NCBI GenBank assembly: GCA_029261165.1
Contig: JAJDBV010000022.1
Coordinates: 1 to 37,278 of the forward strand
Length of the DNA stretch: 37,278 bases
Direction: 5' to 3'
DNA from: Nitrospirota bacterium
Lineage (GTDB): Bacteria; Nitrospirota; Nitrospiria; SBBL01; JAADHI01
The notes under the pieces are model-generated. The model did no database searches and was not told the DNA's origin. It worked only from the letters and a program-made list of their open reading frames with translations. Positions within the stretch are counted from its first letter, which is position 1. The number at the start of each line of letters is the position of its first letter. Below are positions 6,922 through 22,547 of the stretch, in pieces. The position numbers were made by a program, and so were the translations under genes.

Positions 6922-7794
6922 TTAAGAAGGCTTCTTGCCGAGTCGGAGGACAAAGAAACTGAAGATCAGCCATTTGGAGGGGTCAAAGTTATACCATAAA
7001 GGGCCGTTGCGATAGTCTCTTGGAAAATTGTGATGGTAGTTGTGGTACCCCTCACCAAAGGTGAGAAGTGAAATCCACCAATTGTCGCGGCTGCTGTTCG
7101 CATCCCCATAGGGTTGTGTCCCCCAGATATGACAAATGGAGTTAATAAAAAAGGTTGAATTGAGGACAAGGAAGACTCTGAAGACACCCGCGAGAAGAAA
7201 AGCGGAAATAGCTCCGATCCATCCGCGATGGAGAAAACCGATTACGAAAGGAAGGACAAGACCGGAGACAACAACAGCCAAATAATGACGATCCTGCCAC
7301 ATGATCCACTTGTCCTTTCGGAGAGCGGCCTTATATTTTTCTCTCCCACCGGGGTTCTGATCTTTAATGAATATCCACAGGACATGACTATGCCAGAATC
7401 CCTTCTTTGCATTGTAGGGGTCTTCATCTGTATCGGTCTTCGCGTGGTGTCGAATATGGTCGGAACACCACTTGAGTGCTGAATTTTCCAGGGCCCATCC
7501 TCCTGCTATGAGAAGCGCAATCTTAACCGGTGTCGCGCAGGTGAAGCTGCGGTGAGAGATAAGTCGGTGGTATCCGACAGTAATACCCAGGCCGGTGATC
7601 ATGTATAAGACGACAAAGAGTATCCAGTCAAGTTGGGAGTAGCCATAAAAATAGCCAAAAAGGGGAGTGGCAATGAGGGCGAAAATGCTGACCATGGAAA
7701 AAATGGTGATGGTCATATAATCAAACTTCACTTTGTCTTTATTAAGTGGACTGCTCTTGGCTGAGATATTCTGGTTTACTGTGATTTGGTCCAT
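6922..7794 (-). CDS. Membrane fatty acid (acyl-CoA/acyl-lipid delta-9 type) desaturase
   Basis: The 290-residue integral membrane di-iron desaturase carries the three histidine boxes: HRLISH at 76-81, HIRHH at 113-117, and HNYHH near 252. Four or so hydrophobic helices lie at about 30-50, 55-75, 175-195 and 200-222. The HIRHHAKTDTDEDPYNAKKG stretch is typical of the delta-9 (DesC/stearoyl-CoA type) class. It introduces a double bond into saturated acyl chains, setting membrane fluidity. The start at 7794 has GAGG about 6 nt upstream. It lies 85 nt upstream of the NifS-like gene, probably in one unit. Confidence 0.9.
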   Translation of the reverse strand: MDQITVNQNISAKSSPLNKDKVKFDYMTITIFSMVSIFALIATPLFGYFYGYSQLDWILFVVLYMITGLGITVGYHRLISHRSFTCATPVKIALLIAGGWALENSALKWCSDHIRHHAKTDTDEDPYNAKKGFWHSHVLWIFIKDQNPGGREKYKAALRKDKWIMWQDRHYLAVVVSGLVLPFVIGFLHRGWIGAISAFLLAGVFRVFLVLNSTFFINSICHIWGTQPYGDANSSRDNWWISLLTFGEGYHNYHHNFPRDYRNGPLWYNFDPSKWLIFSFFVLRLGKKPS

Positions 7795-7913
7795 TTATAA
7801 CCTCGTAACGATAACAATACTGGATCCTATATTCTTGAAATGCATTCTGACGACACAAAACCCAGCCACCGTACCAGAATCAGAGTAAAAAATCAATGGG
7901 AAGCCACCGAACA

Positions 7914-7942
7914 TTGACATCCCTCAAAATCTAAGATAAGAT
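7914..7942 (+). promoter_or_regulatory. Sigma-70 promoter of tRNA-Gly
   Basis: TTGACA at 7914-7919 and TAAGAT at 7937-7942 have an ideal 17-bp spacer, placing transcription start about 20 nt before the tRNA. Confidence 0.7.
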
Positions 7943-7968
7943 CCCTACCTTGTTTGTCTGTCAGAAAT

Positions 7969-8043
7969 GCGGGAATAGCTCAGTGGTAGAGCATCGCCTT
8001 GCCAAGGCGGAGGTCGCGGGTTCAAATCCCGTTTCCCGCTCCA
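7969..8043 (+). tRNA. tRNA-Gly (anticodon GCC)
   Basis: The acceptor arm GCGGGAA pairs with TTCCCGC at 8033-8039. The D-loop reads AGCTCAGTGGTAGAGC, the anticodon stem-loop CGCCTTGCCAAGGCG gives anticodon GCC, and the T-arm is GCGGGTTCAAATCCCGT. The CCA end is encoded at 8041-8043. No integrase or attachment-site duplication is seen nearby. Confidence 0.97.
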
Positions 8044-8177
8044 ATAACATATTGAAATATAATGATTTTAGTTTTTTATGAACGATGATGGTATGACAAG
8101 CTGTTAGGAAGCGACATGAAAGATATTTAAATATGGCCTGAACGTATAATAAAGAGAAACTATTTAGGTACACGTTA

Positions 8178-10082
8178 TTAGAATCTTAAATTCAGTGTTC
8201 CTAACACCCGTGTCCCGATCTCATCCCCCAAGGGATACTCGCGGTGGATGTCGTTGAAGAGATTGAATACCGACAAAACCAGCTCCGCTTTGTCCTGCAG
8301 AAAACGATAGCCTGTCCGGAGGTTCACAAGGGTATAGGCGTCAGTTTCACGTGTTTGTCCCGGATTATCCAAGGTCTCGGGATAGTTGATCTTCGAGACA
8401 TAGTGGATCAATAGGTCGGCCGTGAGGCCGTTCCCAGGTTGTATGCGGACTCCGCCGTTGACCTTATGTCTCGGGGCGGCGCGTCTAATAGGGGGAGGGC
8501 TGTCGTCATCGACCTGCTGGTGGGCATAGTTTGCGAAAGTAATCAGCCAGGTTCTGATAAGCAACTCTCCCCCGATCTCCCCCCCGTACACCTGGGCCTT
8601 CCCTCGGTTAAAGTAGGTTAAGATCATCGGGTCTCCCTCCGCGGGCTGAGAGTTGATTAGATCCGATAACCGGTTATAGAAAAAGGTAATCTCTCCTTTG
8701 ATGCGTCCAAAGAGAAGTGTGGTATAGCCGGCCTCATAAGAAACGATCCGTTCCGCATCAAGGTCCTGGTTCCCTACGATTTGATTAATAGGCAACGAAG
8801 GTAAGCTAATGGCAATACGTTGAAATGTTTCGAGCGGGGTCGGAGGCCGATAGGCCAGTCCGGCTGATAGGCGGAAGGTCTGGTGCTGGGCCGGTCTGTA
8901 AAGGAGGCTCGCTCTCGGACTGAAGGTATGCTGAATGGTCGTATGATAGTCATACCGTGTGCCAACCACCAGCGTGAGCGACTCCAGGGGGGTCCACGCA
9001 TCCTGGAGATAAATCCCAAAAAGATCGAGCTGATGTCGTTGATCGATAACATTTCCTTTAACGACGTTGAGTCGATAGTTGACCCCTCCGATGAGCTGAT
9101 GGGTCCGGCTAATCGGGACCTGATGCTGCCACTCCAGATTATAGAGTCGAGCATTCGCGATGAATTCCGGCTCGGTTCCCGGGACAAGTGTTGTCTGTTT
9201 TAACTGGGTCCGAAAGCTATTCCAATAAAAACGGAAGAAAGAGCGAGGGTCCTCATAGGTCAACTGGAGATGGCTATAGGTAATATCGGTATCGAGCAAC
9301 CGGGTGATGTCAAAGAGCGGGCCGTCATAACGAGCGGCGTCGCTAATACCCCCGGACAGGCTGAGCCGCTTCTCCGGGCTGAGATGATATCGTATGAGGG
9401 CATTTCCGCGGAAGACCTCCAAGGCAAGTTCATCCCGGTCCCGCCACTCATCGGCCCGGTGATGCCCTAGGGAGAGCTTATAGTCGAACCTTTCGTGTTC
9501 TCCCGCATGGATCAGGCTCATAAGCGATGTCCCCATTTGCCCGCCGGTGGTAGAGATAAAGGTCCCTTTTAGGTCTTTCGGGGATTTGGTGATGATATTT
9601 ACCACGCCATCGAAGGCATTTGCTCCCCAGATCGCCGAACCGGGACCTCGAATGACCTCTATCCTATCAATCTCCTCAATCGTAATGGGTAAAGCGGTCC
9701 AAAGGATAAAATTTTGCACCTCTTCTTGAATGGATCGCCCATCAATCAGAACAAGGAGTTTGTTGGTATGAAGCTGGTTATTCCCTCGAATGCTCACGTT
9801 GAACTCTGCTGCACTGGTCTGCATCACCTCCATCCCCGGCACGCTCCGCAAGATGTCCGGGATACTTGTGGCCCCCGACCGCCGGATCTCGTCTGCTGTA
9901 ACCACCGTGATCGTCGAAGGGGAGTGGCTGATCGGCTGGGGGTGCTTGGACGGGGTTATGACCATTTTCTCTTCGGCAAAGATAGCAAAGATATCCGCGA
10001 GTTCCTCGCTGGGCTCTTCCGCCAGGATCCAATTAGGGAAAATCATGCATGTCAGCACCAATAGATAAATGATCGGTTTCAT
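8178..10082 (-). CDS. TonB-dependent outer-membrane receptor
   Basis: The 634-residue product starts MKPIIYLLVLTC with a signal peptide ending near LAEE. GAGGGG lies 8 nt upstream of this ATG; an upstream extension to 10163 overlaps the kinase gene and was rejected. A plug domain follows (about 50-165) with TITVVTADEIRRSG, IPDILRSVPGMEV, LVLIDGRSI and RIEVIRGPGSAIWGANAFDG. A 22-strand-type barrel ends in a terminal Phe (GTLNLRF). It takes up a scarce ligand using TonB energy; the plug resembles colicin I/BtuB-type receptors but the ligand is not readable. It is the last gene of the regulator-binding protein-kinase unit, 19 nt after the kinase. Confidence 0.92.
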   Translation of the reverse strand: MKPIIYLLVLTCMIFPNWILAEEPSEELADIFAIFAEEKMVITPSKHPQPISHSPSTITVVTADEIRRSGATSIPDILRSVPGMEVMQTSAAEFNVSIRGNNQLHTNKLLVLIDGRSIQEEVQNFILWTALPITIEEIDRIEVIRGPGSAIWGANAFDGVVNIITKSPKDLKGTFISTTGGQMGTSLMSLIHAGEHERFDYKLSLGHHRADEWRDRDELALEVFRGNALIRYHLSPEKRLSLSGGISDAARYDGPLFDITRLLDTDITYSHLQLTYEDPRSFFRFYWNSFRTQLKQTTLVPGTEPEFIANARLYNLEWQHQVPISRTHQLIGGVNYRLNVVKGNVIDQRHQLDLFGIYLQDAWTPLESLTLVVGTRYDYHTTIQHTFSPRASLLYRPAQHQTFRLSAGLAYRPPTPLETFQRIAISLPSLPINQIVGNQDLDAERIVSYEAGYTTLLFGRIKGEITFFYNRLSDLINSQPAEGDPMILTYFNRGKAQVYGGEIGGELLIRTWLITFANYAHQQVDDDSPPPIRRAAPRHKVNGGVRIQPGNGLTADLLIHYVSKINYPETLDNPGQTRETDAYTLVNLRTGYRFLQDKAELVLSVFNLFNDIHREYPLGDEIGTRVLGTLNLRF

Positions 10083-10101
10083 CCTTTGCACCCCTCTATT
10101 T

Positions 10102-12084
10102 TTAACGACACGACGATATAATCGGTAGAGTAAAAGAAAACTCACTCCCTTTCCCGACCTCACTGGTCACCCGGATTTGTCCCCCATGCAGATCTATGAG
10201 GTTCTTCGCGATAAACATGCCTAAGCCCGATCCGATTTCATGTGTGGAGGATGCTCGCTCAACTTGGAAAAAGCGCTCAAAAATCCGTGGCTGCTCCTCC
10301 GGCGGAATTCCGATTCCGGTATCCTTGATTGTGGTTTTGAGAACTTGTTGCTCCTTCTGCAGTGTGATGGTGATCTGACCGCCTGGGGGCGTAAACTTAA
10401 TCGCATTATCAAGAAGGTTTGTGATAACCTGTTCGAGTTTGTCTCGGTCTCCTTGAAGCAGGCTATTTTCTTCGAATTTATTGAGAATGACCTTGAGCTT
10501 TTTCTCGACCGTGATGGGTCGGATGGCATTAACCACCTCTTCGATCAGACCTTGTAGCGAAAGCATAGTAAGATTTAGCTCCAGTTTCGCAGATTCCATT
10601 CTAGAGACGTCTAGTAGGTCACTAATCAAGCGGACCAACCTCCCCGCATTCTTAGACATCCGATCCAGGTAATTTTTTTGTCTCTCAGTTAAGTCTCCGC
10701 CAATCCCATCTTGCAGGTTATCAATATATCCTTTGATCACAGTGAGAGGGGTCCGTAAGTCATGAGAGACCTGGGAGACAAATTCCGACTTCAGCCGATC
10801 TACTTCTTTGAGGGCGGTGATATCATGAAGAACGGCTACCTTTCCCGAAAGGTGTCCCCAGTGATCTTTAAGTGGGGCGGACACGGCTGTGATAACCTGG
10901 GAAGATGCGCGTCCCGGATCATGAACCTCGATCTCGCGCATGGCAACCTCAGAAGGATTCAGAAAGATCTCCTGCAGATGCGGAATGTGGGAGAAGAGAG
11001 ATAAATCCTTAGCATCGGAAGCGTCAATGCTTCCCAACAGCATCTTCCTGGCGGCTGGATTAATTAGAATGATACGCTCGTTCACATCAATGACGATGAT
11101 CCCATCAGCAATATCATGAATGATCCTCTCGGTCTTCCTTTTTTCGTTGTTGACTTGGCGGATAACTCCTTCTAATTCCTTGGTTCTTGCCTTTACGCGT
11201 TCTTCAAGAGTCAGATTTAAATTGGTCAGTTTTCTGTTTAAAATTTCCAACTGATCCGTGCGCTCCTTGATTTGTTGATCACGTGCTTTGAGGGAATGGG
11301 TCATCTGGTTAAAGATGGTGGTCAGTTCACCGATCTCATCCTTGCTGGTGACGGGGGCGGATTGTGAAAGGTCCCCGCTTCCTATTTTCTGGGCGATCAT
11401 GGCCAATGTTTCCAGCGGCCTGACATTGTGTTTTGAAACAAAATAGACCAGGCCAACTCCTCCCATCATCATCATGAGCGTGACAAGAATTGAAATGCCC
11501 AAGACCTTCCGGATCTGTTGATTCAATAGTTCGGGAGACATCCCGACCTGAATAAATCCCTGTATCACGGATCCCGGTGTCCCCGGTTTTTCAAACCTTT
11601 CTTCTAAAAGCTCCGTTGGGAAGCCTCGCGGCCTCTCCGTTGATTTCATCACAGGCGCCAAGATATCGTACAATCTCCGTCCATCTTTCGCTAAGTACGA
11701 TTTGACCGAGGGGATTCTGTCAGTGAAGGCCTTTTTTCTGATTTGAGGGAGATCGGGTGCTCCTTCGTCGAATTCATCTGGTAGTTGTTTAGATTTTTGG
11801 GCGAGTATGTCTCCTGAAGGGTTTGAGATGGCGACATAGACCACATCCTCCACCTGAAGGACTCCTTGAATCAAATCCTGAAGGATGACCAGATCTTCCG
11901 AAAAGACACCATATCTGCTGTTGTATGCAGTATTTTCGGCCAGGATGAGGCCACGCTTTGTAAAATTTTCCAGCAAGACCGTCTTGGTTTGGCTAAAGAA
12001 AGTGAAACCTAAAGCTGTGCAGATCACCACAATGATGAGGCTAAAGAAAATGACCAACTTCAGTTTAAGGGGATACTTAATCAT
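10102..12084 (-). CDS. Membrane sensor histidine kinase (HAMP-PAS-HisKA-HATPase)
   Basis: The 660-residue product has TM1 at about 8-30, a periplasmic sensor of about 165 residues, and TM2 at about 195-216. HAMP (217-270) and a coiled coil to 320 follow, then a PAS domain (about 320-425) ending KVAVLHDIT. HisKA carries SHDLRTP (phospho-His441), and HATPase has [21 protein letters not shown] and [10 protein letters not shown]. It signals from the periplasm, presumably to the NtrC-type regulator two genes upstream. Its start overlaps the end of the binding-protein gene by 8 nt, so the two are coupled. The coupled soluble binding protein is a plausible ligand-presenting partner. Confidence 0.95.
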
Positions 12085-13017: not shown

Positions 13018-14379
13018 TTATCGAACCTCTAACTTTTTAATTAAACGAGCCAGATAGGTTCGCTGAAGTCTTAGCATTTCTGCCGCTTTGGCCTGGTTCC
13101 CTCCGGTTCGTTCCAAAGCATGCAGGATCACCTCTCTCTGATAGGTGCGTACCGCATCGTGATAAGGTTTTTCCAACGAAGATTCTTCTTTAAGGACAGT
13201 AATAGGTTGAAGAGGGAGGTCTTCAGGCAAGATATCCTTCCCTTTGGCTAATACCACAGCGCGTTCCATTAGATTCGCCAGTTCCCTCACATTTCCAGGC
13301 CAGTGATAGCCCATTAAATGATTTATTGCCCCCTGAGAAATCCCCATCAGTGGTTTTTTTACATTATGGCAGGCCTTGCGAATAAAAAAGTCGGTCAGGA
13401 GTGGAACATCCTCCTTTCTCTCCCTCAACGGCGGAATGGAAATGGGTACCACATTGAGGCGAAAAAAAAGATCTTCTCGAAATCGACCTTCTCGAACTGC
13501 CTGATGTAGATCTTGATTCGTGGCGGCGATGATTCGAATATCGACCTGGATCGGTTTTGTACCCCCAACCCGTTCAAACTCACGTTCCTGTAAAACCCGG
13601 AGGAGCTTAACCTGAAGTTCAGGTTTGAAATCACCGATCTCATCTAAAAGGATGGTTCCTCCATCGGCGATTTCGAGCTTTCCACGTTTCTTCTGATGGG
13701 CACCCGTGAAGGCCCCTTTTTCATGCCCGAAGAGTTCACTTTCGAGGAGCTCGTCCCGTAAGGCGACGCAGTTTACGACGACGAAGGATTTCTTGGATCG
13801 CGGGCTCCAACGGTGAATAGATCGAGCAAAAATTTCCTTTCCAGTCCCGCTCTCGCCCAAGAGAAGAACCGTAGACGATGTGACGGCGACTCTCTGCGCA
13901 GTTTCAATGACCTTTTTAAGCGGTGCACTCTCCCCCATAATCTCAAGGTACGGCGCGTTGACCTCTCCTTGAAGGTAATTATTCTGTCGCTTGAGTGCCT
14001 GGCAGACGAGGGCCTTTTTAATGACGACACTGAGATGATCTGGTGAAAAGGGCTTTGCAATGAAATCAAAAGCGCCTCTTTTCATCGCTTCGACGGCTTT
14101 CTCAATTGTACCGAAGGCAGTGATAATGATAACCATGAGGTCAGAATGGTCTTTGAGCCGCTTTAGTACCTCCATGCCATCCAGCTCAGGCATCTGGAGA
14201 TCAAGAAACATCAGGTCAGGTTCCTCTAAGATGACCAGTTGCAACGCCTCTTGGCCATTCTCTGCGGTCACGACCCGGTAGCCTAAGATCTCAAGACGGT
14301 CTTTGAGAATAGTGCGAATATCAACGTCATCATCGACAATCAGGATTTTTTTTTGAGGAGTTTCCATAATATTACTCAC
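13018..14379 (-). CDS. NtrC-family sigma-54-dependent response regulator
   Basis: The 453-residue product has a receiver domain (10-125) with phospho-acceptor Asp60 in LMFLDLQMPELDG. The AAA+ domain (about 147-380) has Walker A GESGTGKE at 175-182, the sigma-54-contacting GAFTGA at 222-227 and Walker B GGTILLDEIGD at 240-250. A Fis-type helix-turn-helix (about 420-453) contains GGNQAKAAEMLRLQRTYLARLI. All motifs needed for activation are intact. It starts at GTG 14379 (an in-frame ATG at 14367 is the alternative). It heads the unit with the binding protein, kinase and TonB receptor. Candidate targets are the sigma-54-like promoters at 17110 and 17583. Confidence 0.96.
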   Translation of the reverse strand: MSNIMETPQKKILIVDDDVDIRTILKDRLEILGYRVVTAENGQEALQLVILEEPDLMFLDLQMPELDGMEVLKRLKDHSDLMVIIITAFGTIEKAVEAMKRGAFDFIAKPFSPDHLSVVIKKALVCQALKRQNNYLQGEVNAPYLEIMGESAPLKKVIETAQRVAVTSSTVLLLGESGTGKEIFARSIHRWSPRSKKSFVVVNCVALRDELLESELFGHEKGAFTGAHQKKRGKLEIADGGTILLDEIGDFKPELQVKLLRVLQEREFERVGGTKPIQVDIRIIAATNQDLHQAVREGRFREDLFFRLNVVPISIPPLRERKEDVPLLTDFFIRKACHNVKKPLMGISQGAINHLMGYHWPGNVRELANLMERAVVLAKGKDILPEDLPLQPITVLKEESSLEKPYHDAVRTYQREVILHALERTGGNQAKAAEMLRLQRTYLARLIKKLEVR

Positions 14380-14533: not shown

Positions 14534-15496
14534 CTATCTTTTTATCTTGTTCCTGAACTTTTTTCTCATCTCATCCATCAGATCTTCCATCTCCTTCATC
14601 TGATCGGCAATCAGGTGATTAAGAAGATAAGGGCGTTTCCTGGTGAGGGTTTTTGGGGTGAGTTTCTGTTGCGTACTTTTCAGGGGCGCTGCAGATGAAG
14701 ATGTTTCTGTTTTCTCCGATAGAATCGGAGACACAGGACCAAACTTGATGGGTATCCCTTTCAATGATAGCCAATCTCGGGCGACACTTGATTTTACAGA
14801 AAAATTGATATCGGTGATCGTCAGACCGTCAGCCGAACGGCGTGAGATAGATGTATTGATGCCGATCATGTAACCCCGCTCATCGAGGAGGGGGCCACCT
14901 GAATTGCCCCGGTTAAAGCTTGTCTCTGTTTGAAAGATATGTTTCCCTTCTATTCCGTTAAAGTTTTCGATCTCCGCGCTGATAGCGCCGGTCGTCAAAG
15001 TCCAGAGCCCCCCCGTCTCGGGATGTCCGATTGCGACAACAGGCTCTCCGATCGATACCTCTTCCGGGTTTCCGATAGCCACCACGTTGAGGTCCTGAGG
15101 CGGTCTTTCTATTTTAAGAAGGGCTAAGTCAAGATCCTCATTGAAACCCAACACCTGAGCCTCAAAGCGTTTTATCAGATCCTGATTCATATTTCCTGTG
15201 ACCCGATTCGGTTTTAGGAAGATATTTATTTTTTTGTAGGGACGCTTTGTTTTCTTTGAGATCACCACATGGGCATTGGTGATGACAAGACCCTCCGGAT
15301 GGATAATAGAACCGGTCCCGCCGCTCCCTGTCCGACTGTTATCACTCCCCAAGACCAAGACGACCCCGAGACCAACCTTCTGATAGATATCCTTTGGACT
15401 TAAGGGAAATCCGATAGCGGGCAAAAAGAAAACAAGGAAGATGAAAATACCGCCTCCCCAACATCGGGAGGAAGGGTGTTTTCTCTCTTTTAACAT
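14534..15496 (-). CDS. Exported trypsin-like (HtrA-type) serine protease without PDZ
   Basis: The 320-residue product has an N-terminal hydrophobic signal (GIFIFLVFFLPAIGFPL). A chymotrypsin-fold protease follows with the triad His in VITNAHVV, Asp in NEDLDLALLKI and Ser in RGNSGGPLLDERG. This is the S1C/HtrA signature, but no PDZ domain follows. Instead there is a linker and a basic C-terminal coiled coil (QMKEMEDLMDEMRKKFRN). It acts in the periplasm or as a secreted enzyme. The ATG at 15496 has AGGAGG 7 nt upstream. It lies 188 nt downstream of the LPP20 lipoprotein on the same strand, and no clear promoter was found between them. Confidence 0.9.
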   Translation of the reverse strand: MLKERKHPSSRCWGGGIFIFLVFFLPAIGFPLSPKDIYQKVGLGVVLVLGSDNSRTGSGGTGSIIHPEGLVITNAHVVISKKTKRPYKKINIFLKPNRVTGNMNQDLIKRFEAQVLGFNEDLDLALLKIERPPQDLNVVAIGNPEEVSIGEPVVAIGHPETGGLWTLTTGAISAEIENFNGIEGKHIFQTETSFNRGNSGGPLLDERGYMIGINTSISRRSADGLTITDINFSVKSSVARDWLSLKGIPIKFGPVSPILSEKTETSSSAAPLKSTQQKLTPKTLTRKRPYLLNHLIADQMKEMEDLMDEMRKKFRNKIKR

Positions 15497-15684: not shown

Positions 15685-16269
15685 CTATTTTCCTCGCTTT
15701 TCTTCTTCCATCGCGAGGCTATCAAAAGATTTTTCGGCATTCTTCCGAACAAAGTCCCGAACCTTGGCGTTCAACTGCTTGATTTTGTCGACACTGTTCT
15801 TGAAGTTGTCCAAGTCAAGTTTGGCTAAGGCATACATGGTTCCATCGGAAGGATCGGTCCAATGATCTATGATCATCACACCGGAGAGGGTGGCTGCCGA
15901 GAAGGTCTTTACCGCTTGTTCAATGTGTTGTTCTTCGCTGGTGGCCGACTCGACACGGATGGCTGCCCCTCCTGAGGTGGAGGCGGCATAATCCTTCATC
16001 AGCGAGGCGGTGTAGGTCTCGAAGGTCTTGGTGATTTGCGCCCTCGCCCTATTTTGGGCGGCAGTCCTTGCGAGCGGTTTATTTCTAACACCATTGATGG
16101 CCCCAACACCGTAAAAGACCTGTTGCCCGGAATCTTTAAAAGCACCTCCACCTATCATAATCCAATCCGGTTCCGCTTTCTTTGATAGTGGGGTACTGGT
16201 ACAACTTGCCAAAAGAACAGTAATCCCTCCCAGCACAACCATTTTAGAGAATAAATGTTTGATCTTCAT
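15685..16269 (-). CDS. LPP20-family lipoprotein
   Basis: The 194-residue product starts MKIKHLFSKMVV and has a lipobox LLASC with the lipidated Cys at 23. The mature domain (PDWIMIGGGAFKD, FYGVGAINGVRNKPLARTAAQNRA, AATLSGVMIIDHWTDPSDGTMYALAKLDLDNF) matches the LPP20 lipoprotein fold. That fold is common in Gram-negative envelopes and lacks a firm molecular role. AGGAGG lies 9 nt before the ATG. It is 28 nt downstream of the beta-barrel gene and shares its sigma-54-type promoter. The same LPP20-like fold appears to recur in the N-terminal half of the DUF4384 protein in the opposite arm. Confidence 0.85.
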   Translation of the reverse strand: MKIKHLFSKMVVLGGITVLLASCTSTPLSKKAEPDWIMIGGGAFKDSGQQVFYGVGAINGVRNKPLARTAAQNRARAQITKTFETYTASLMKDYAASTSGGAAIRVESATSEEQHIEQAVKTFSAATLSGVMIIDHWTDPSDGTMYALAKLDLDNFKNSVDKIKQLNAKVRDFVRKNAEKSFDSLAMEEEKRGK

Positions 16270-16297
16270 AGCGCACGTCCTCCTAATGTATAGTTTG

Positions 16298-17020
16298 TTA
16301 AAATGAGTAACTGACCCCAAATGTGAGACCACTGAATTCCTCTTTTACCCGCGAGTCATCCGTTTTGGCAGTTTGAATCTTATAGCCTGCAGTAGCGCTT
16401 GCAGGGAGTCCTTCAAAGATGTATGCGCCTGACACATCGAAAGAAAAACCTGGAAAATCTTCTGTCGGACGATTTTCAGAGTCCAGTTCGAGGAATAGGT
16501 AGGAAAGACTTCCAGTAAAAAAGAAGCGCGTTCCTTCAAGTGGATAATTAAAATTTACGCCAAATCCGGGGCCGAAGGCGTTGAAGTCTGACTCACTGAT
16601 GATGGGAGCTGAGACGCCTGTCGTATCGACTACTGTGGTTGTTTGTTGGACGTCGATATGTTTGTAACCGACAAACCCCCCTATTCTCGGATGAAAATTG
16701 TAACCAAGAATCATATCGAGATCTGTTCGTTCCCATTCCAACTCCGCGTGAACTCCTGGAGAAATAGGTTGATCTTCGAAGTTAAATGTTCCCGTCAACC
16801 AGGTTACGCCAACAAAAAAATCTCCACTGCGAGCACCAAATGCGGGTCCTGCCATCACGCCTACGTCAGACTGATCATCGAATCCTCCAGCGATTGTCTC
16901 ATCCCATATTGCAATCCATGTCTTTAACCCGACTGTAAATTGAGGACGCTCTTGGGCCTTGGCCGAAGTTGCATACCCGAGTACCAGGATGACAACTAAT
17001 GTTGATAGCATCTTTTTCAT
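16298..17020 (-). CDS. Outer-membrane beta-barrel protein
   Basis: The 240-residue product starts MKKMLSTLVVILVLG with a signal peptide cleaved near TSAKA, and AAGGAG lies 7 nt upstream. The mature part is alternating amphipathic beta strands (FFVGVTWLTGTFNF, DLDMILGYNFHPRIGGFVGYKH, TRFFFTGSLSYLF). It ends with FGVSYSF, the C-terminal Phe signal for BAM insertion. The strand count suggests an 8-12-strand small barrel. The exact family is not recognised. It is the first gene of the minus-strand arm of the divergent region, with a consensus sigma-54 promoter about 90 bp upstream. Confidence 0.82.
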   Translation of the reverse strand: MKKMLSTLVVILVLGYATSAKAQERPQFTVGLKTWIAIWDETIAGGFDDQSDVGVMAGPAFGARSGDFFVGVTWLTGTFNFEDQPISPGVHAELEWERTDLDMILGYNFHPRIGGFVGYKHIDVQQTTTVVDTTGVSAPIISESDFNAFGPGFGVNFNYPLEGTRFFFTGSLSYLFLELDSENRPTEDFPGFSFDVSGAYIFEGLPASATAGYKIQTAKTDDSRVKEEFSGLTFGVSYSF

Positions 17021-17109
17021 ATCAATCTCCTTTTTAAGATTCTCTGGCCCAAACGGCAACGCACCCGTGATCTATTCAACTGAATTTATTTGATTCACTA
17101 TTCAGCTAT

Positions 17110-17125
17110 AGCAAACGAGGTGCCA
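17110..17125 (-). promoter_or_regulatory. Sigma-54 (-24/-12) promoter, consensus match
   Basis: The minus strand reads TGGCAC-CTCGT-TTGCT, matching the TGGCAC-N5-TTGCW consensus at every position. Predicted transcription start is near 17098, giving a leader of about 78 nt before the beta-barrel gene at 17020. Confidence 0.75.
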
Positions 17126-17167
17126 GAAATACTTCACGGTCTGATCGACCTTGTTGTCATAATAAAA

Positions 17168-17489
17168 AGAGATTGGATTACAATGAGTTACTAACAGAGT
17201 ATTTCTTTAAGAAGTGATGTAATCGGATCATAGGGATTACTTTTTGCCGATCGAGATGTTATCTGAAGGGATAATAAAGAGAGGCGATTGGATACACTTG
17301 TCTATCTAGGTTGTTTCTTCTGGATGCCCCAGTATGACAGCCGTATCCATCTAATTTCTTTCCTCTGCGATCCTCACTTTAAAATTGAGCCGCTACGAAA
17401 ATTCCATCAAGGTGTATCCAATGGTTTCTCTCTGATATCCCATTAGATAACATTTTGGGCCGGGAGGGTTTCTACATTCCAATCTCTTG
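17168..17489. promoter_or_regulatory. Nested inverted GATTGGA motifs between divergent promoters
   Basis: The inner pair is CGATTGGATACACTTG at 17285-17300 and CAAGGTGTATCCAATGG at 17408-17424 (inverted). The outer pair is AGAGATTGGAT at about 17168-17180 and ATTCCAATCTCT at about 17476-17487 (inverted). Orientation is +,+,-,-. They lie upstream of both sigma-54-like promoters, where enhancer-binding proteins dock. The rest of 17060-17580 holds no gene that I can support. Confidence 0.55.
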
Positions 17490-17582
17490 TCCCCTTTTTC
17501 AAAACTGAATCCATACGTAAGTCTTTATCATATGGGAAGTTTTAGTTATTCCGGATCGAACACTTAGGTTGTGAATCATTTC

Positions 17583-17598
17583 GGGCATACTCTTTGCT
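17583..17598 (+). promoter_or_regulatory. Sigma-54-like promoter of the caspase operon
   Basis: GGGCAT-ACTCT-TTGCT keeps the invariant GG and GC with correct spacing (two mismatches in the -24 box). Predicted start is near 17610, giving a leader of about 210 nt before the gene at 17819. Confidence 0.5.
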
Positions 17599-17708
17599 GT
17601 AATATGGGACCGTATTCGATGAAGTTAAGCAAGGGAATGAGGCTCTTCCGGCAAGGCTTTTTCATTGGCAAAGGGAAACAAGATGCCTTCCGTAAGAATA
17701 TGATGTGT

Positions 17709-17799
17709 TAGGTCAGCGATAGAAAAGACTTCTTTTGGGAGAAGTCAGGCTAATGACCTGATTTACGTATTGACCATGAAAGTGCAATATCCACTTTCA
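17709..17799 (+). promoter_or_regulatory. Structured 5' leader of the caspase operon
   Basis: AGGTCA (17710-17715) pairs with TGACCT (17754-17759) around an inner hairpin, GACTTCT/AGAAGTC (17727-17746). A separate perfect hairpin, TGAAAGTG/CACTTTCA (17777-17799), ends 7 nt before the AAGGAG ribosome site. A 30-codon reading frame without a ribosome site (17619-17711) precedes these structures. Confidence 0.4.
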
Positions 17800-17818
17800 C
17801 AATCATAAGGAGAATCAG

Positions 17819-18340
17819 ATGAAAATATTTTTTCGGATCAGCATGGTTGTCATGTCTGTTTTGTTTTTTCTGCCGAGCGCCAAAGCGGCTGACTCATCTT
17901 GGTATGTCGGGTTAAAAGCCGGACAAATGATGGTTGACTTAGACGGGTTAGACGATGCGACAAATGGAGGTGTATTAGTCGGGTACAGTTTTGGGGATTT
18001 TGCAATTGAAGCTGAATACACCACTACACTTTCCGAGGGAGATGTCACAATATTAGGGGTGCCGGGCGAATGGGATATTAACACTTTTGCTGTATATGGT
18101 GTTTATCGTAGTTCGGGAAATATTTATTTCAAAGGGAAAGTTGGTTTTCTGAATGAAGATGTTTCCATTAATGTTAATGCTTTTGGTACCCCCATCTCTG
18201 CAGCTGGTTCAGATTCAAGTGCGTCTTTAGGTGTTGGAGTCGGTTGGCGTATTCCAGATTCCAACAGTTTGGAGCTTGAATACACGATCGTTGAAGAAGA
18301 TATTGATTTTTTAAGTCTTGGGTACAATTACCATTTTTAA
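17819..18340 (+). CDS. Small outer-membrane beta-barrel protein
   Basis: The 173-residue product has a signal peptide (MKIFFRISMVVMSVLFFLPSAKA) with likely cleavage after AKA. The rest is short amphipathic strands typical of an 8-strand OmpA/OmpX-like barrel (SWYVGLKAGQMMVDLDG, FAIEAEYTTTL, NIYFKGKVGFL, SASLGVGVGWRI), ending LSLGYNYHF with the terminal Phe. The family is OMP_b-brl/porin_4-like by appearance. AAGGAG at 17807-17812 is well placed. It leads the caspase-PEGA-DUF4384 unit and is followed by a strong hairpin at 18351-18382. Confidence 0.82.
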   Translation: MKIFFRISMVVMSVLFFLPSAKAADSSWYVGLKAGQMMVDLDGLDDATNGGVLVGYSFGDFAIEAEYTTTLSEGDVTILGVPGEWDINTFAVYGVYRSSGNIYFKGKVGFLNEDVSINVNAFGTPISAAGSDSSASLGVGVGWRIPDSNSLELEYTIVEEDIDFLSLGYNYHF

Positions 18341-18350
18341 GGACTTATCT

Positions 18351-18382
18351 CCCTCTCCAGGTGGGAACGCATCTGGAGAGGG
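18351..18382 (+). terminator. Strong 10-bp stem-loop between barrel and caspase genes
   Basis: CCCTCTCCAG at 18351-18360 pairs perfectly with CTGGAGAGGG at 18373-18382 around a 12-nt loop. No T-tract follows, so it may be an attenuator or an mRNA-stability element rather than a full terminator. Confidence 0.5.
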
Positions 18383-18508
18383 ATGTCCAATCAGTTGTTT
18401 CACACGACTGATGTGAGCAGCTTTGGTTCTAGCTCCCATCATTTCCTCGCGGGTCAGCTCAAATCGAGGGGGGCTTATTCCACTGAGCCGTTTAGTAAAG
18501 AGGAATCA

Positions 18509-20428
18509 ATGAGGGTGAGGTATAAAAAGAAGGTTTGGATCAGCATTTCCTTAATCTTTTTCGTGCTCTTGCAAGGCATGGATCGTGTGTGGGGAGAGAT
18601 ATTTGTCGTTTCTCCAGGCGAAGGAGGCATCCAACGGGCAATAGGTGAGGCCCGGCCAGGTGATGTCATTAAAGTAAGACCAGGGAGGTACAGGGAATCA
18701 CTGATGCTCAAGAGTGGTATCACCCTGGAAGGGGGAGGTCGAGATCAAGTTGAGATCACGTTTCAGGATGGCAATACTCTCTGGGGGAAAAACATTAAGG
18801 ATGTAAAGATCATTGGGGTTTCCCTTGTGGCTGGTGGGAATAGACCTTTTGCCGCCGTGAAGTTAGAGGAGGCACAAGGGGTTACATTTACAGATTGCCT
18901 GATCAAGGGAGGCGCCCTCTCCGGTATTGAGGTTGAAGATTCCAATAATGTGTCGATAGATAAATGTGTTATCTCAGGCAATGGAGGTGCTGGTGTCCTC
19001 ATTGTGGATTCCAGCAATGTGCATCTGACAGACAATCAGACCGAGGGAAATGAATTTCAAGGGATTGCCATCCAGCGGTCAATTGATATCGTTGCTTCTG
19101 GCAATGTGATCCTGAGGAATGATGCGGCCGGGATGTTTATCGCTGACAACTCCGAGGTAGTGATTAAAAAAAACCTCATCCTTCATAACCGGATCTCAGG
19201 CATCGAGATCGAAAATGCTGAAGGGGAGGTGACGAACAATACAATCATAGAGAACAAGGTGGCCGCGATAAGGTTATCTGATCATTCCCGGGGAAGCATC
19301 ATCCAGAATATTGTCGCATCTAACGATTTTGGTATTGTCTTGGGCCTCGGGAGCAGGGCAATCTTTGGGTATAACAATGTATATCAAAATCGGACCTATA
19401 ACTATGCCCGAACAGGTCCTCAGACCGCGAAGTCTTTTCCTGTTTCTGAAGATCGTTCTTTGTCTTCTTCAACAGATATTTCTGTTGATCCTTACTTTGT
19501 CGACGAGCGTCGCGGAGATTATTTCCTTTTCGTTGATTCTCCATTGGCGGGTAGGGGGAGGAACGGGGGTCACATCGGGGCGTTTCCGCCAAGGGCCGAT
19601 ACGCAAAGCATTGTGGATATCATTCCTGAACCTGGTTTAGTTAGAGAGAATAAGAACGCGTTCGCGCTTGTAATCGGGATCAGTCGGTATCGAGAAAAGG
19701 CCATTCCCGGGATAAAATTTGCGTCCCATGATGCCAAAATTATGGCTAAGTATCTAGAGAAGGTGAGGGGGATCCCCCGGAAAAATATAAAAGTCCTCAT
19801 CGATGAAGAGGCCACAAAAGGTGATTTTGAGGCCTATTTTGAGGAGTGGCTCCCCCGAAGGGTGAAGAAAGACTCCACCGTCTTTGTCTATTATGCCGGG
19901 CATGGGACACCCGACCCAAAAACGCAGGAGGCCTTTCTCGTTCCATATGACGGACACCCTGATTTCACGCGCAAACTCTACCCTTTAAAGAGGGTCTATG
20001 CCGCTCTGAATACCCTCTCCTCGAAAGAGATCATCGTCATGCTCGACTCCTGTTTTTCAGGAGCCGGCGGTCGTTCAATCATTCAGGTCGGGGCACGCCC
20101 AATGGGTATTACACTCGAGGACCCACTCTTAGCGGGGGGGAAGGTCATTGTATTTGCCGCGGCGGCTGGGAGCCAGGTTAGTTCCGACTATGAAAAGGTC
20201 AAACATGGGTTATTCACCTACTTTTTATTGAAAGGGATGGGGGGAGAGGCCGGATTGTCTGATACAAATCGCAATGGAGAGGTCTCGCTAGAAGAGCTGT
20301 CGCGCTATGTGGCGGTGCAGGTTTCTGAGGTGGCCATTCGAGACCTGAATCGTGAGCAGACCCCTGTGTTGCGGCCGGCGTTAGAGTTTTTAGGAGACAG
20401 ATCTCACTTTCCCCTCGTCCATAGATAG
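18509..20428 (+). CDS. Exported parallel beta-helix / caspase-like (C14) fusion protein
   Basis: The 639-residue product has a signal sequence (about 7-29). Residues 35-330 form a right-handed parallel beta-helix of NosD/Beta_helix type (GIEVEDSNNVSIDKC, GIAIQRSIDIVASGN, GMFIADNSEVVIKKN). Residues 380-625 are a caspase-like domain with His465 in VYYAGHGTPD and Cys515 in IVMLDSCFSGAGGRS, plus KNAFALVIGISRY at its start. An EF-hand-consistent loop (DTNRNGEVSLEE, 585-596) lies near the end. An upstream in-frame ATG at 18383 was rejected because it would bury the signal sequence. The PEGA gene follows after 12 nt. Both catalytic residues are intact; substrate is unknown. Confidence 0.92.
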   Translation: MRVRYKKKVWISISLIFFVLLQGMDRVWGEIFVVSPGEGGIQRAIGEARPGDVIKVRPGRYRESLMLKSGITLEGGGRDQVEITFQDGNTLWGKNIKDVKIIGVSLVAGGNRPFAAVKLEEAQGVTFTDCLIKGGALSGIEVEDSNNVSIDKCVISGNGGAGVLIVDSSNVHLTDNQTEGNEFQGIAIQRSIDIVASGNVILRNDAAGMFIADNSEVVIKKNLILHNRISGIEIENAEGEVTNNTIIENKVAAIRLSDHSRGSIIQNIVASNDFGIVLGLGSRAIFGYNNVYQNRTYNYARTGPQTAKSFPVSEDRSLSSSTDISVDPYFVDERRGDYFLFVDSPLAGRGRNGGHIGAFPPRADTQSIVDIIPEPGLVRENKNAFALVIGISRYREKAIPGIKFASHDAKIMAKYLEKVRGIPRKNIKVLIDEEATKGDFEAYFEEWLPRRVKKDSTVFVYYAGHGTPDPKTQEAFLVPYDGHPDFTRKLYPLKRVYAALNTLSSKEIIVMLDSCFSGAGGRSIIQVGARPMGITLEDPLLAGGKVIVFAAAAGSQVSSDYEKVKHGLFTYFLLKGMGGEAGLSDTNRNGEVSLEELSRYVAVQVSEVAIRDLNREQTPVLRPALEFLGDRSHFPLVHR

Positions 20429-20440
20429 CATGGAGATGCG

Positions 20441-21091
20441 ATGAGTCTATTTTTCATTATTTTCGCGCTTGTTGTCTTTCCCTCCAATCTCGGTGCTCAG
20501 GAAACGCGTGGCCATGTTCAACAGATCGGGGTACAGCCGCTTCCCAGGCATCAGGCCCCTCTTGTATCGATAGGGGTTCTCGTTTTAAATATCGCTGAAC
20601 AGGCGGAGGTTTATATCAATAATCAATTTATTGGTGAAGCACCATTGAGGGATAGATTTATTTCACTCCACCCTGGAAGTTACAATATCGTTGTGAAAAA
20701 AGAGGGGTATAAGTCCTGGGTAAAGAAGGTTGAGGTACCTGGGAATGGAGAGATTCATCTTTCTGCCTCTCTCTTGCGGAGAACAGGGATACTCATTATC
20801 AGGCCTAATATTGCTGGAACAGATGTTTTTGTCGATGGCGTGCGTAAGGAGATCTCTCCCTTGCTGGAAGGCATAAGGTTTACGCCTGGAGAGCATACGA
20901 TTCGGATAACAAAAAGAGGATTTTTCCCTTGGGAGCGGACTGTAGTCGTTTGGGAGGATAAAAAGATTACCGTGAACCCCTCCCTACAACAGAAACCGGA
21001 AGAACCACATTTCAGAGAGCCATCGGTGGAACGCCCTCAAAAAAGATCACGAAATGAGGAAGATGAAATCATAATTTTCCCGTCGTTTTAG
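20441..21091 (+). CDS. Exported PEGA-domain protein
   Basis: The 216-residue product has a signal peptide (MSLFFIIFALVVFPSNLGAQ). Two tandem PEGA domains cover about 47-112 and 115-182: AEVYINNQFIGEAPL with HPGSYNIVVKKEGYKSW, then TDVFVDGVRKEISPL with TPGEHTIRITKRGFFPWERTV. The tail is charged and proline-containing (EPSVERPQKRSRNEEDE). PEGA domains are small beta-sandwich modules of surface and periplasmic proteins, thought to bind cell wall or other envelope components. GGAG lies just before the ATG. It sits 12 nt after the caspase gene and 51 nt before the DUF4384 gene, so it is probably co-transcribed. Confidence 0.88.
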   Translation: MSLFFIIFALVVFPSNLGAQETRGHVQQIGVQPLPRHQAPLVSIGVLVLNIAEQAEVYINNQFIGEAPLRDRFISLHPGSYNIVVKKEGYKSWVKKVEVPGNGEIHLSASLLRRTGILIIRPNIAGTDVFVDGVRKEISPLLEGIRFTPGEHTIRITKRGFFPWERTVVVWEDKKITVNPSLQQKPEEPHFREPSVERPQKRSRNEEDEIIIFPSF

Positions 21092-21142
21092 ATAAGTCAA
21101 GACCGTTTATCACCGAATAAAAACCTTGAGGGCAGTAAAAGG

Positions 21143-22468
21143 ATGAATTTCAAGAACCTTCTATTCTGTGTTATTTCCTTGTCACTTTTGTTGTGGTCCT
21201 GCACAGCAGGTAATTCTTACGTTAAATTAAAGCAAGAGTTAGAAAAACAGTACCCCGTCAACCGCTACTATTTCGACGTCGGCGAGGCGCCGCTCAACCA
21301 GCCGACGGCCTCCAGTCCTGGGGCGGCCGAGGCAATGGCTCGTGAGGTAGCCTTGAATCTGGCCCGTGCCGGGATTTCCAGGCAGATCCGTATTGCTATT
21401 CAAGCACAGGTGCTCGATTTATTGATGGTCAAGCACGTCGATGGAACGGTGGAGGAGACGCTTGAGATCACACAGATTATTACATCGCGAACGAATGAGA
21501 TCCTAAAAGGAGTGAAGGTCGTGCAAGAAGACAGAGAAGACCGACTGGGTATCTACCGGGTCGTGGCCGTGATGCCGAAGGGGCGGGCCAACCTGAATCT
21601 AAACCGGCTCGAAACAGACCTGGCTGCACTCACTCAGATGGTTTCCGTCCCTAAGCCGGGTCCACCAAAGACAAGCCCGCCGCCGCTCACATCGATAGAA
21701 AGGGATACCGCTCGAGGAGGGGTTTGGGTGGAGGGAGAAGGGGAGGCCCCTTTTGGCTTGGACACGACGCTTGGAAAGGCCAAGACACAAGCGCGGGATG
21801 CGGCCCGCAAGGACGCCATCGAGAGGGCCGTGGGGACCCACCTGAAAAGCAAGACGGTGGTCCATAATTCCCAATTGGTTGAAGATCTCATTACCACCGC
21901 CGCACGCGGGATTATTGAAGAGGAACACGTGTTAGAAGAGAAGATGCATGAGCTCAAAGGAACGGTCTTTTACGTTAAGATTCGGGCCAGGATCCGCCTC
22001 GATCAGGTGGAACATCAGGACTTTGTTCTGACGGCATTTCTTAATCGCGATAGTTTTAAAGAAGGGGACGAGGCTCGGATTCATATCAGCCTGAATGAGG
22101 ATGGCTATATCTACATCTTCAACATCTCACAGGATGAACAAGTCTGGCAGCTTCTGCCAAATGTGCTTGTCTCGAAGCATTTTATCAGGTCTGGAGAGGA
22201 ATTCGTTTTTCCGGACGAACCGTTGCGAAATCGCGGGGTCAAGCTCCGTGTGAGCTTGCTGCCGGATATGACGCGGGCGACGGAGCATATCAAGGTAATT
22301 GCATCGAGGAAAAAACTAAACTTGAAAGTCAGTCATGTCAAAGAGGCAATCTTTCCATTGCATGCTGGAAAAGAAAGCGGCATGATCGCTGATCTGATCA
22401 AGGCGCTGGCACACATTGACGGTACCGAATGGGCCGAGATCACCCTTCCATATGATGTGAAAAAGTAA
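21143..22468 (+). CDS. Lipoprotein with LPP20/FlgT-like and DUF4384 domains
   Basis: The 441-residue product has a lipobox LLWSC with Cys20. Residues about 55-150 form a domain of the LPP20/FlgT-N type (AMAREVALNLARAGISRQIR). A proline-rich linker (170-182) follows, then a second FlgT-like region (about 194-290) with GVWVEGEGEAPFG and AKTQARDAARKDAIERAVG. A DUF4384 domain (about 300-390) has SFKEGDEARIHISLNEDGYI and DEQVWQLLPN. DUF4384 commonly accompanies caspase-like proteins, which agrees with the caspase gene two positions upstream. It is an envelope-anchored partner, not an enzyme by any motif I can see. Confidence 0.85.
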   Translation: MNFKNLLFCVISLSLLLWSCTAGNSYVKLKQELEKQYPVNRYYFDVGEAPLNQPTASSPGAAEAMAREVALNLARAGISRQIRIAIQAQVLDLLMVKHVDGTVEETLEITQIITSRTNEILKGVKVVQEDREDRLGIYRVVAVMPKGRANLNLNRLETDLAALTQMVSVPKPGPPKTSPPPLTSIERDTARGGVWVEGEGEAPFGLDTTLGKAKTQARDAARKDAIERAVGTHLKSKTVVHNSQLVEDLITTAARGIIEEEHVLEEKMHELKGTVFYVKIRARIRLDQVEHQDFVLTAFLNRDSFKEGDEARIHISLNEDGYIYIFNISQDEQVWQLLPNVLVSKHFIRSGEEFVFPDEPLRNRGVKLRVSLLPDMTRATEHIKVIASRKKLNLKVSHVKEAIFPLHAGKESGMIADLIKALAHIDGTEWAEITLPYDVKK

Positions 22469-22531: not shown

Positions 22532-22547
22532 AAGGTGTATCCAATCG
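22532..22547 (-). promoter_or_regulatory. Third copy of the CGATTGGATACACCTT motif
   Basis: On the minus strand this reads CGATTGGATACACCTT, matching the inner sites at 17285 and 17408. It lies about 285 bp upstream of the cytochrome c gene. The rest of 22514-22829 shows no supported gene or clear promoter. Confidence 0.4.

What the first reader, a model, noticed from the sequence alone, without database searches (positions are those of the whole stretch)
15685..22468. Candidate envelope caspase system: barrel/LPP20 and barrel/caspase/PEGA/DUF4384 arms
Every product of the two divergent arms carries an export or lipoprotein signal. The arms combine two beta-barrels, an LPP20 lipoprotein, a beta-helix-caspase fusion with intact His465/Cys515, a double PEGA protein and a DUF4384 lipoprotein. 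DUF4384 often accompanies caspases. Co-localisation with outer-membrane proteins under shared sigma-54-type control suggests a surface proteolytic or stress-response complex.
Basis: partly seen in the sequence, partly recalled or inferred. Interest (0 to 1): 0.75.

Follow-up and report, generated by a model that had tools for sequence, protein, structure and literature searches.

The report
Exported caspase-PEGA-DUF4384 envelope cassette
A Nitrospirota bacterium carries a gene set for an apparently active caspase-like protease that is exported from the cell together with two partner proteins; the partnership recurs in relatives and hints that caspase-type proteases work in bacterial envelopes, but nothing has been tested at the bench.

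Summary
In detail: six exported products in two divergent arms, with the caspase dyad His465/Cys515 intact.

Right arm: caspase, PEGA and DUF4384 are a real, recurring module. They lie in the same order in another Nitrospirota family (52/28/57% identity). PEGA is fused to the caspase, with DUF4384 nearby, in four further loci. In this class, 38 of 62 DUF4384 domains are fused to a caspase or lie within 7 kb of one (about 2% expected). Related loci occur in Nitrospinota and Cloacimonadota. Barrel R is an orphan in the class.

Left arm: barrel L-LPP20-HtrA is a separate envelope unit, conserved in another family without a caspase. No relative shows the two arms divergent. Still, LPP20 and caspase folds meet elsewhere: one relative clusters LPP20 x2, HtrA, DUF4384 and caspases, and in 24 of 24 sampled Nitrospiraceae LPP20 follows a pseudo-caspase that has lost its catalytic Cys.

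Sigma-54: a perfect site serves the left arm, a weaker one the right.

Most likely it is an envelope orthocaspase, held and regulated in trans by an LPP20/FlgT-fold DUF4384 lipoprotein. This is a new variant of a known kind; caspase-DUF4384 fusions are published.

The parts
18509..20428 (+). exported beta-helix-orthocaspase fusion, 639 aa; catalytic His465 and Cys515; EF-hand-like loop D585-E596
   Evidence: Pfam Beta_helix and Peptidase_C14; dyad and numbering; only caspase in the genome; N-terminus MRVRYKKKVWISISLIFFVLLQGMDRVWG reads as a signal peptide; fold nearest to MALT1 paracaspase
20441..21091 (+). exported protein with two PEGA domains, 12 bp after the caspase stop
   Evidence: Pfam PEGA, two stretches; weak homologue in the same position in G020; PEGA fused to caspase in G044, G037, L127, L139
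21143..22468 (+). lipoprotein with LPP20-like, FlgT_N-like and DUF4384 domains
   Evidence: Pfam; full-length 57% relative in G020; lipobox LWSC; AlphaFold model whose Foldseek matches include H. pylori Lpp20 5ok8
17819..18340 (+). barrel R: small outer-membrane beta-barrel; probably not part of the conserved cassette
   Evidence: OMP_b-brl; no convincing relative in the class; 14-bp inverted repeat 18350-18383 separates it from the caspase
16298..17020 (-). barrel L: exported protein ending in Phe, first gene of the left arm
   Evidence: AKA-Q signal peptide and C-terminal YSF; distant homologue directly upstream of LPP20 in family f10 genomes
15685..16269 (-). LPP20 lipoprotein
   Evidence: PF02169; lipobox LASC; homologue in 96 of 117 class genomes
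14534..15496 (-). HtrA-like trypsin-fold protease, follows LPP20
   Evidence: Trypsin_2 E 7e-28; neighbour of LPP20 in f10 genomes, G020 and G044; His, Asp and GNSGGP Ser motifs read directly in the sequence
13018..14379 (-). sigma-54-dependent response regulator (candidate activator of the left arm)
   Evidence: Sigma54_activat, Response_reg and HTH_8
17110..17125 (-). perfect -24/-12 sigma-54 promoter match TGGCACCTCGTTTGCT upstream of barrel L
   Evidence: only perfect match in the window
17583..17598 (+). weak -24/-12-like site GGGCATACTCTTTGCT facing the right arm
   Evidence: 9 of 11 positions; one of four sites this good or better in the window
17251..17458 (.). long imperfect inverted repeat between the arms (about 45 bp stem)
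   Evidence: z -7.6; single copy in the genome

Best explanation
The core of the finding is the right arm, 18509-22468. It encodes an exported orthocaspase with a beta-helix, an exported PEGA protein and a DUF4384 lipoprotein. I propose that the lipoprotein sits in the outer membrane facing the periplasm, that its LPP20/FlgT-type domains oligomerise or bind the cell-wall side, and that its DUF4384 domain docks and regulates the caspase in trans, as it presumably does in cis where the two are fused. The beta-helix and PEGA domains would bind envelope glycan or wall and place the protease. The caspase would cleave envelope substrates after Arg or Lys, possibly in response to Ca2+ through an EF-hand-like loop. 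Shown: gene content, export signals by reading, intact dyad, recurring linkage and domain fusions. Inferred: localisation, docking, Ca2+ response, substrate class and any stress role. The left arm is a separate envelope operon (barrel-LPP20-HtrA, sigma-54 promoter) whose LPP20 protein may at most be an auxiliary partner.
For: G020, a Nitrospirota MAG of another family, has caspase-PEGA-DUF4384 in the same order at 52, 28 and 57% identity. The nearest caspase (59%, G044) is a PEGA-caspase fusion in a cluster with DUF4384, two LPP20 proteins, HtrA and a second caspase. Further PEGA-caspase fusions beside DUF4384: L127, L139, G037. Of 62 DUF4384 domains examined in the class, 13 are fused to a caspase and 25 more lie within 7 kb; about five caspases per 3.6-Mb genome would give roughly 2%. 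Linked loci occur in Nitrospinota (L134) and Cloacimonadota (L137). Dyad and surrounding motifs are invariant among the active relatives aligned. The two acidic positions that in MALT1 read Arg (my knowledge of MALT1) appear conserved as Asp (H-D-A and D-x-C motifs); MALT1 is the nearest solved fold. The loop DTNRNGEVSLEE fits a strict EF-hand pattern found in 23 of 48 active relatives against 0.08% in shuffled sequence.
Against: No other member of the window's own family has this set. The PEGA homologue is weak (28%). The beta-helix is not found with any other caspase in the class and modelled poorly, so it may be a recent, idiosyncratic fusion. DUF4384 also occurs away from caspases (24 of 62). 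Neighbourhood and fusion show association, not mechanism. Exported pseudo-caspases are common in Nitrospiraceae, so the fold need not act as a protease. Only half of the active relatives carry the strict EF-hand pattern.
Confidence: 0.6

Rival explanations
1. One integrated envelope caspase system made of both arms: the two barrels, LPP20, caspase, PEGA and DUF4384 form one complex under shared sigma-54 control.
For: Outward-facing sigma-54-like sites on both sides of the intergenic region; the G044 cluster unites LPP20 x2, HtrA, DUF4384 and caspases; LPP20 follows a pseudo-caspase in 24 of 24 sampled Nitrospiraceae; LPP20 beside a caspase in G020:C27, G008 and G059.
Against: Barrel-LPP20-HtrA stands without a caspase in family f10; barrel R is an orphan; no relative shows the divergent arrangement; the right-arm sigma-54 site is weak.
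Confidence: 0.2
2. Cell-death or anti-phage effector: the caspase is a suicide protease triggered by infection or damage, in the manner of intracellular bacterial caspase systems.
For: The caspase domain matches PADLOC's caspase model (E 9e-19) and NCBIfam's EACC1-associated caspase model, below its cut-off (75 of 140 bits); prokaryotic caspases are often discussed as death proteases (PMC7475262).
Against: All partners are exported, no sensor, nuclease or NTPase partner is encoded in the arms, no other arm protein matches a convincing defence family, and the genes to the right are housekeeping.
Confidence: 0.07
3. Chance neighbours: the envelope genes lie together without working together, and the right arm is a loose set of transferred genes.
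For: The set is absent from the rest of the family; the barrels are poorly conserved or orphan; the flanking cytochrome gene has quite different neighbours in family members.
Against: Order is kept in G020, domain fusions join PEGA-caspase and caspase-DUF4384 in several lineages, and the linkage rate is about thirty-fold above chance.
Confidence: 0.13

Closest known systems
Orthocaspases fused to DUF4384 (Cyanobacteria, Alphaproteobacteria; PMC8283722, PMC6426788)
   Same: Caspase p20 domain joined to DUF4384; [quoted passage not shown]
   Different: Here the two are separate exported proteins, DUF4384 is on an LPP20/FlgT-fold lipoprotein, a PEGA gene lies between them, and the caspase carries a beta-helix and an intact His-Cys dyad (the alphaproteobacterial group has Gln-Cys).
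Prokaryotic metacaspase homologues of Nitrospirae surveyed in 2012 (PMC3501461)
   Same: Same phylum; that survey reported a high metacaspase density (1.11 per 1000 proteins) and low dyad conservation (57%) there, and N-terminal helices that may be signal peptides.
   Different: The terms PEGA, NosD and genomic neighbourhood do not occur in that paper; linkage to LPP20, LpoB or DUF4384 lipoproteins is not described in the passages read.
MALT1 paracaspase and metacaspases
   Same: Caspase fold; nearest solved structures; acidic pocket positions appear shared.
   Different: Exported bacterial protein with a beta-helix; no death or Ig domains; 16-19% identity.
LPP20 / FlgP / FlgT family envelope lipoproteins (H. 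pylori Lpp20, 5ok8)
   Same: The DUF4384 lipoprotein and the left-arm lipoprotein carry this type of domain.
   Different: Attached to DUF4384 and linked to caspases instead of flagellar genes.

Membership tests
Orthocaspase (Peptidase C14) | Caspase domain above the Pfam gathering score | tested here: met
   54.5 bits against a cut-off of 21.4
Orthocaspase (Peptidase C14) | Catalytic His-Cys dyad in YYAGHG and DSCFSG contexts | tested here: met
   His465 and Cys515 (numbering from ATG 18509)
Orthocaspase (Peptidase C14) | Proteolytic activity after Arg or Lys | not testable with these tools
   Acidic pocket positions appear conserved; no assay
EACC1-associated caspase (NF047832) | Score above the curated cut-off of 140 bits | tested here: not met
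   75.4 bits
DUF4384 (PF14326) | Score above gathering cut-off | tested here: met
   56.3 bits against 27
LPP20 lipoprotein (PF02169) | Score above gathering cut-off and a lipobox (left-arm protein) | tested here: met
   15685-16269: 33.2 bits against 25.9, LASC lipobox
LPP20 lipoprotein (PF02169) | LPP20 domain in the N-terminal part of the DUF4384 lipoprotein | tested here: inconclusive
   22.3 bits, below the 25.9 cut-off, but its G020 relative passes (27.9) and the model's Foldseek matches include Lpp20 5ok8
Sigma-54-dependent transcription unit | -24 GG and -12 GC elements with consensus spacing | tested here: met
   Left arm: perfect match 17110-17125. Right arm: weak match only
Known anti-phage defence system | Match of several arm proteins to a PADLOC system | tested here: not met
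   Only a single-protein caspase model and generic protease models match well

The most novel reading that the evidence does not exclude
Nitrospirota and some other phyla run caspase-fold proteins in their envelope as a general scheme: active orthocaspases paired with DUF4384 lipoproteins and PEGA proteins, and an exported pseudo-caspase built into the LPP20-LpoB operon of Nitrospiraceae. Caspase folds would then act as envelope regulators or scaffolds next to peptidoglycan-synthase activators, not as death proteases.
Probability: 0.35. Interest if true: 0.75.

Novelty: new variant of a known kind. Interest (0 to 1): 0.5.

Why it matters
Prokaryotic caspases are usually discussed as death or immunity proteases inside the cell. 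A conserved exported set, with an apparently active caspase and lipoprotein partners, would move part of this family into the cell envelope. It would give DUF4384, a domain of unknown function, a concrete role to test (a caspase partner), and it makes the question of what bacterial caspases do outside cell death directly testable with three genes.

Tried and rejected
Empty-site analysis failed: the flanking cytochrome gene sits in quite different surroundings in family members. The 45-bp inverted repeat between the arms was considered as a mobile element (MITE), but it is single copy in the genome and matches no Rfam family. Repeats GGTGTATCCAATSG at 17285, 17411 and 22534 flank the right arm; they were considered as element ends, with no further support found. 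Anti-phage defence was tested with PADLOC and not supported. The beta-helix half of the caspase did not fold confidently. A sequence search of solved structures with the caspase alone found nothing; only the family profile did. The literature search for caspase domain together with PEGA domain found no paper in the held library.
Full report
OBSERVATION. The window is a whole contig of a genome of about 2.9 Mb. That it is Nitrospirota follows from its relatives, e.g. the MAG JACRHA010000141.1, a contig of the same length and content as G020:C97. Corrected starts are 16269 for LPP20, 17020 for barrel L and 18509 for the caspase. With 18509 as the start the dyad is His465/Cys515, as stated. Searches used a caspase query that began one codon later, so their numbering is lower by one. 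All six N-termini read as export signals, two of them lipoboxes, and both barrels end in Phe (by inspection, no predictor available).

TRANSCRIPTION SIGNALS. A -24/-12 scan requiring the GG and GC elements gives a perfect site at 17110-17125 on the minus strand, upstream of barrel L, and one of 9 of 11 at 17583-17598 on the plus strand, upstream of barrel R. Only four sites in the window score 9 or more, so one falling by chance in the right place and direction has an expectation of about 0.04. The left promoter is convincing, the right one suggestive. A sigma-54-dependent response regulator lies at 13018-14379 and a histidine kinase at 10102-12084. Between the arms lies a long imperfect inverted repeat (17251-17458, z -7.6), single copy in the genome.

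RIGHT ARM. Among 116 related genomes the beta-helix half of the caspase is not matched in any listed hit; the caspase domain is, best at 59% in G044. G020, of another family, has caspase, PEGA and DUF4384 in the same order and strand, at 52, 28 and 57% identity, the last over nearly its full length. Its caspase has a CARDB domain where the window has a beta-helix. In G044 the nearest caspase is itself a PEGA-caspase fusion, and the 12-kb cluster around it holds two LPP20 proteins, HtrA, a DUF4384 protein, a second caspase, an AIM24 and an M48 peptidase gene. PEGA-caspase fusions next to DUF4384 also occur in L127, L139 and G037. The PEGA domain thus moves between separate gene and fused domain, which is good evidence of a shared function.

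LINKAGE STATISTICS. In the class, 67 DUF4384 hits were found in 37 of 117 genomes. Of 62 domains, 13 are in one frame with a caspase, 25 lie within 7 kb and 24 have none; 23 of 36 genomes have at least one linked case. With about five caspases per 3.6-Mb genome, about 2% would be expected within 7 kb. Relatedness of the genomes inflates the raw count, but the cases span several families and architectures. A scan of named genomes found the same pairing in further Nitrospirota and in one Nitrospinota and one Cloacimonadota contig.

LEFT ARM. The LPP20 lipoprotein has homologues in 96 of 117 genomes. In family f10 it lies in the order barrel L, LPP20, HtrA, with an LpoB-like protein further on in the one examined, and without a caspase. 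The left arm of the window matches that arrangement, so it is best read as a separate envelope operon. Barrel R has only two weak partial matches in the class. No relative has the two arms divergent.

LPP20 AND CASPASE FOLDS ELSEWHERE. In 24 of 24 sampled Nitrospiraceae (family f6) genomes the LPP20 gene is preceded on the same strand by a caspase-fold protein that keeps the catalytic His but has Asn, Ala, Gly or Pro for Cys; the four checked with Pfam carry TPR repeats, and in the one examined further an LpoB-like gene follows LPP20. Most show a readable signal peptide ending before a conserved Q-x-G-[KR]-P-E stretch. Low dyad conservation in Nitrospirae was already reported (PMC3501461).

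MECHANISM. The caspase model is confident over the caspase domain only; nearest solved folds are MALT1 and metacaspases. The Asp of the DSC motif and the Asp of the HDA motif appear to match the positions that give MALT1 its Arg preference; that MALT1 role is from my own knowledge and the match rests on alignment by eye. A loop DTNRNGEVSLEE fits the EF-hand pattern, and Pfam sees a weak EF-hand in one relative; a Ca2+ response is an inference. The DUF4384 lipoprotein model (pLDDT 77) has two alpha-beta domains and a beta-rich domain; among weak Foldseek matches H. pylori Lpp20 is the one that fits the family. Because DUF4384 is fused to caspases in many proteins, docking in trans is the simplest reading here.

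KNOWN OR NEW. DUF4384 has been reported as an accessory domain of cyanobacterial orthocaspases (23 cases, PMC8283722) and of alphaproteobacterial pseudo-orthocaspases with a trypsin-like domain (PMC6426788). No paper in the held library joins caspase domain and PEGA domain. The separate, exported caspase-PEGA-DUF4384 cassette is therefore a new variant of a known association.

Noticed in passing
L167-L186, L081, L154, L155, L158 (LPP20 loci of family f6, Nitrospiraceae): In 24 of 24 sampled genomes a caspase-fold protein with catalytic His kept and Cys replaced by N, A, G or P precedes LPP20 on the same strand; most have a readable signal peptide.
   Followed up: partly
L013-L031 (caspase hits in family f6): Most of these C-terminal caspase domains have lost the dyad, commonly Gln/Thr in place of His/Cys.
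   Followed up: no
window 17251-17458: Long imperfect inverted repeat (about 45 bp stem, z -7.6) between the arms, single copy in the genome, no Rfam match.
   Followed up: partly
window 17285-17298, 17411-17424, 22534-22547: Three copies of GGTGTATCCAATSG (0-1 mismatch) flank the right arm; five matches with up to two mismatches in the window against 0.4 expected.
   Followed up: partly
L106:7189-10524: Caspase gene in G008 whose dyad residues lie in two adjacent open frames (7189-10098 and 10102-10524) split by a stop.
   Followed up: no
L086 (G001) and L092 (G023): Large caspase gene beside a sigma-54-activator gene, with DUF4384 nearby, in the window's own family (G001; WD40-caspase and CHASE2 by Pfam) and in f11 (G023).
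   Followed up: no
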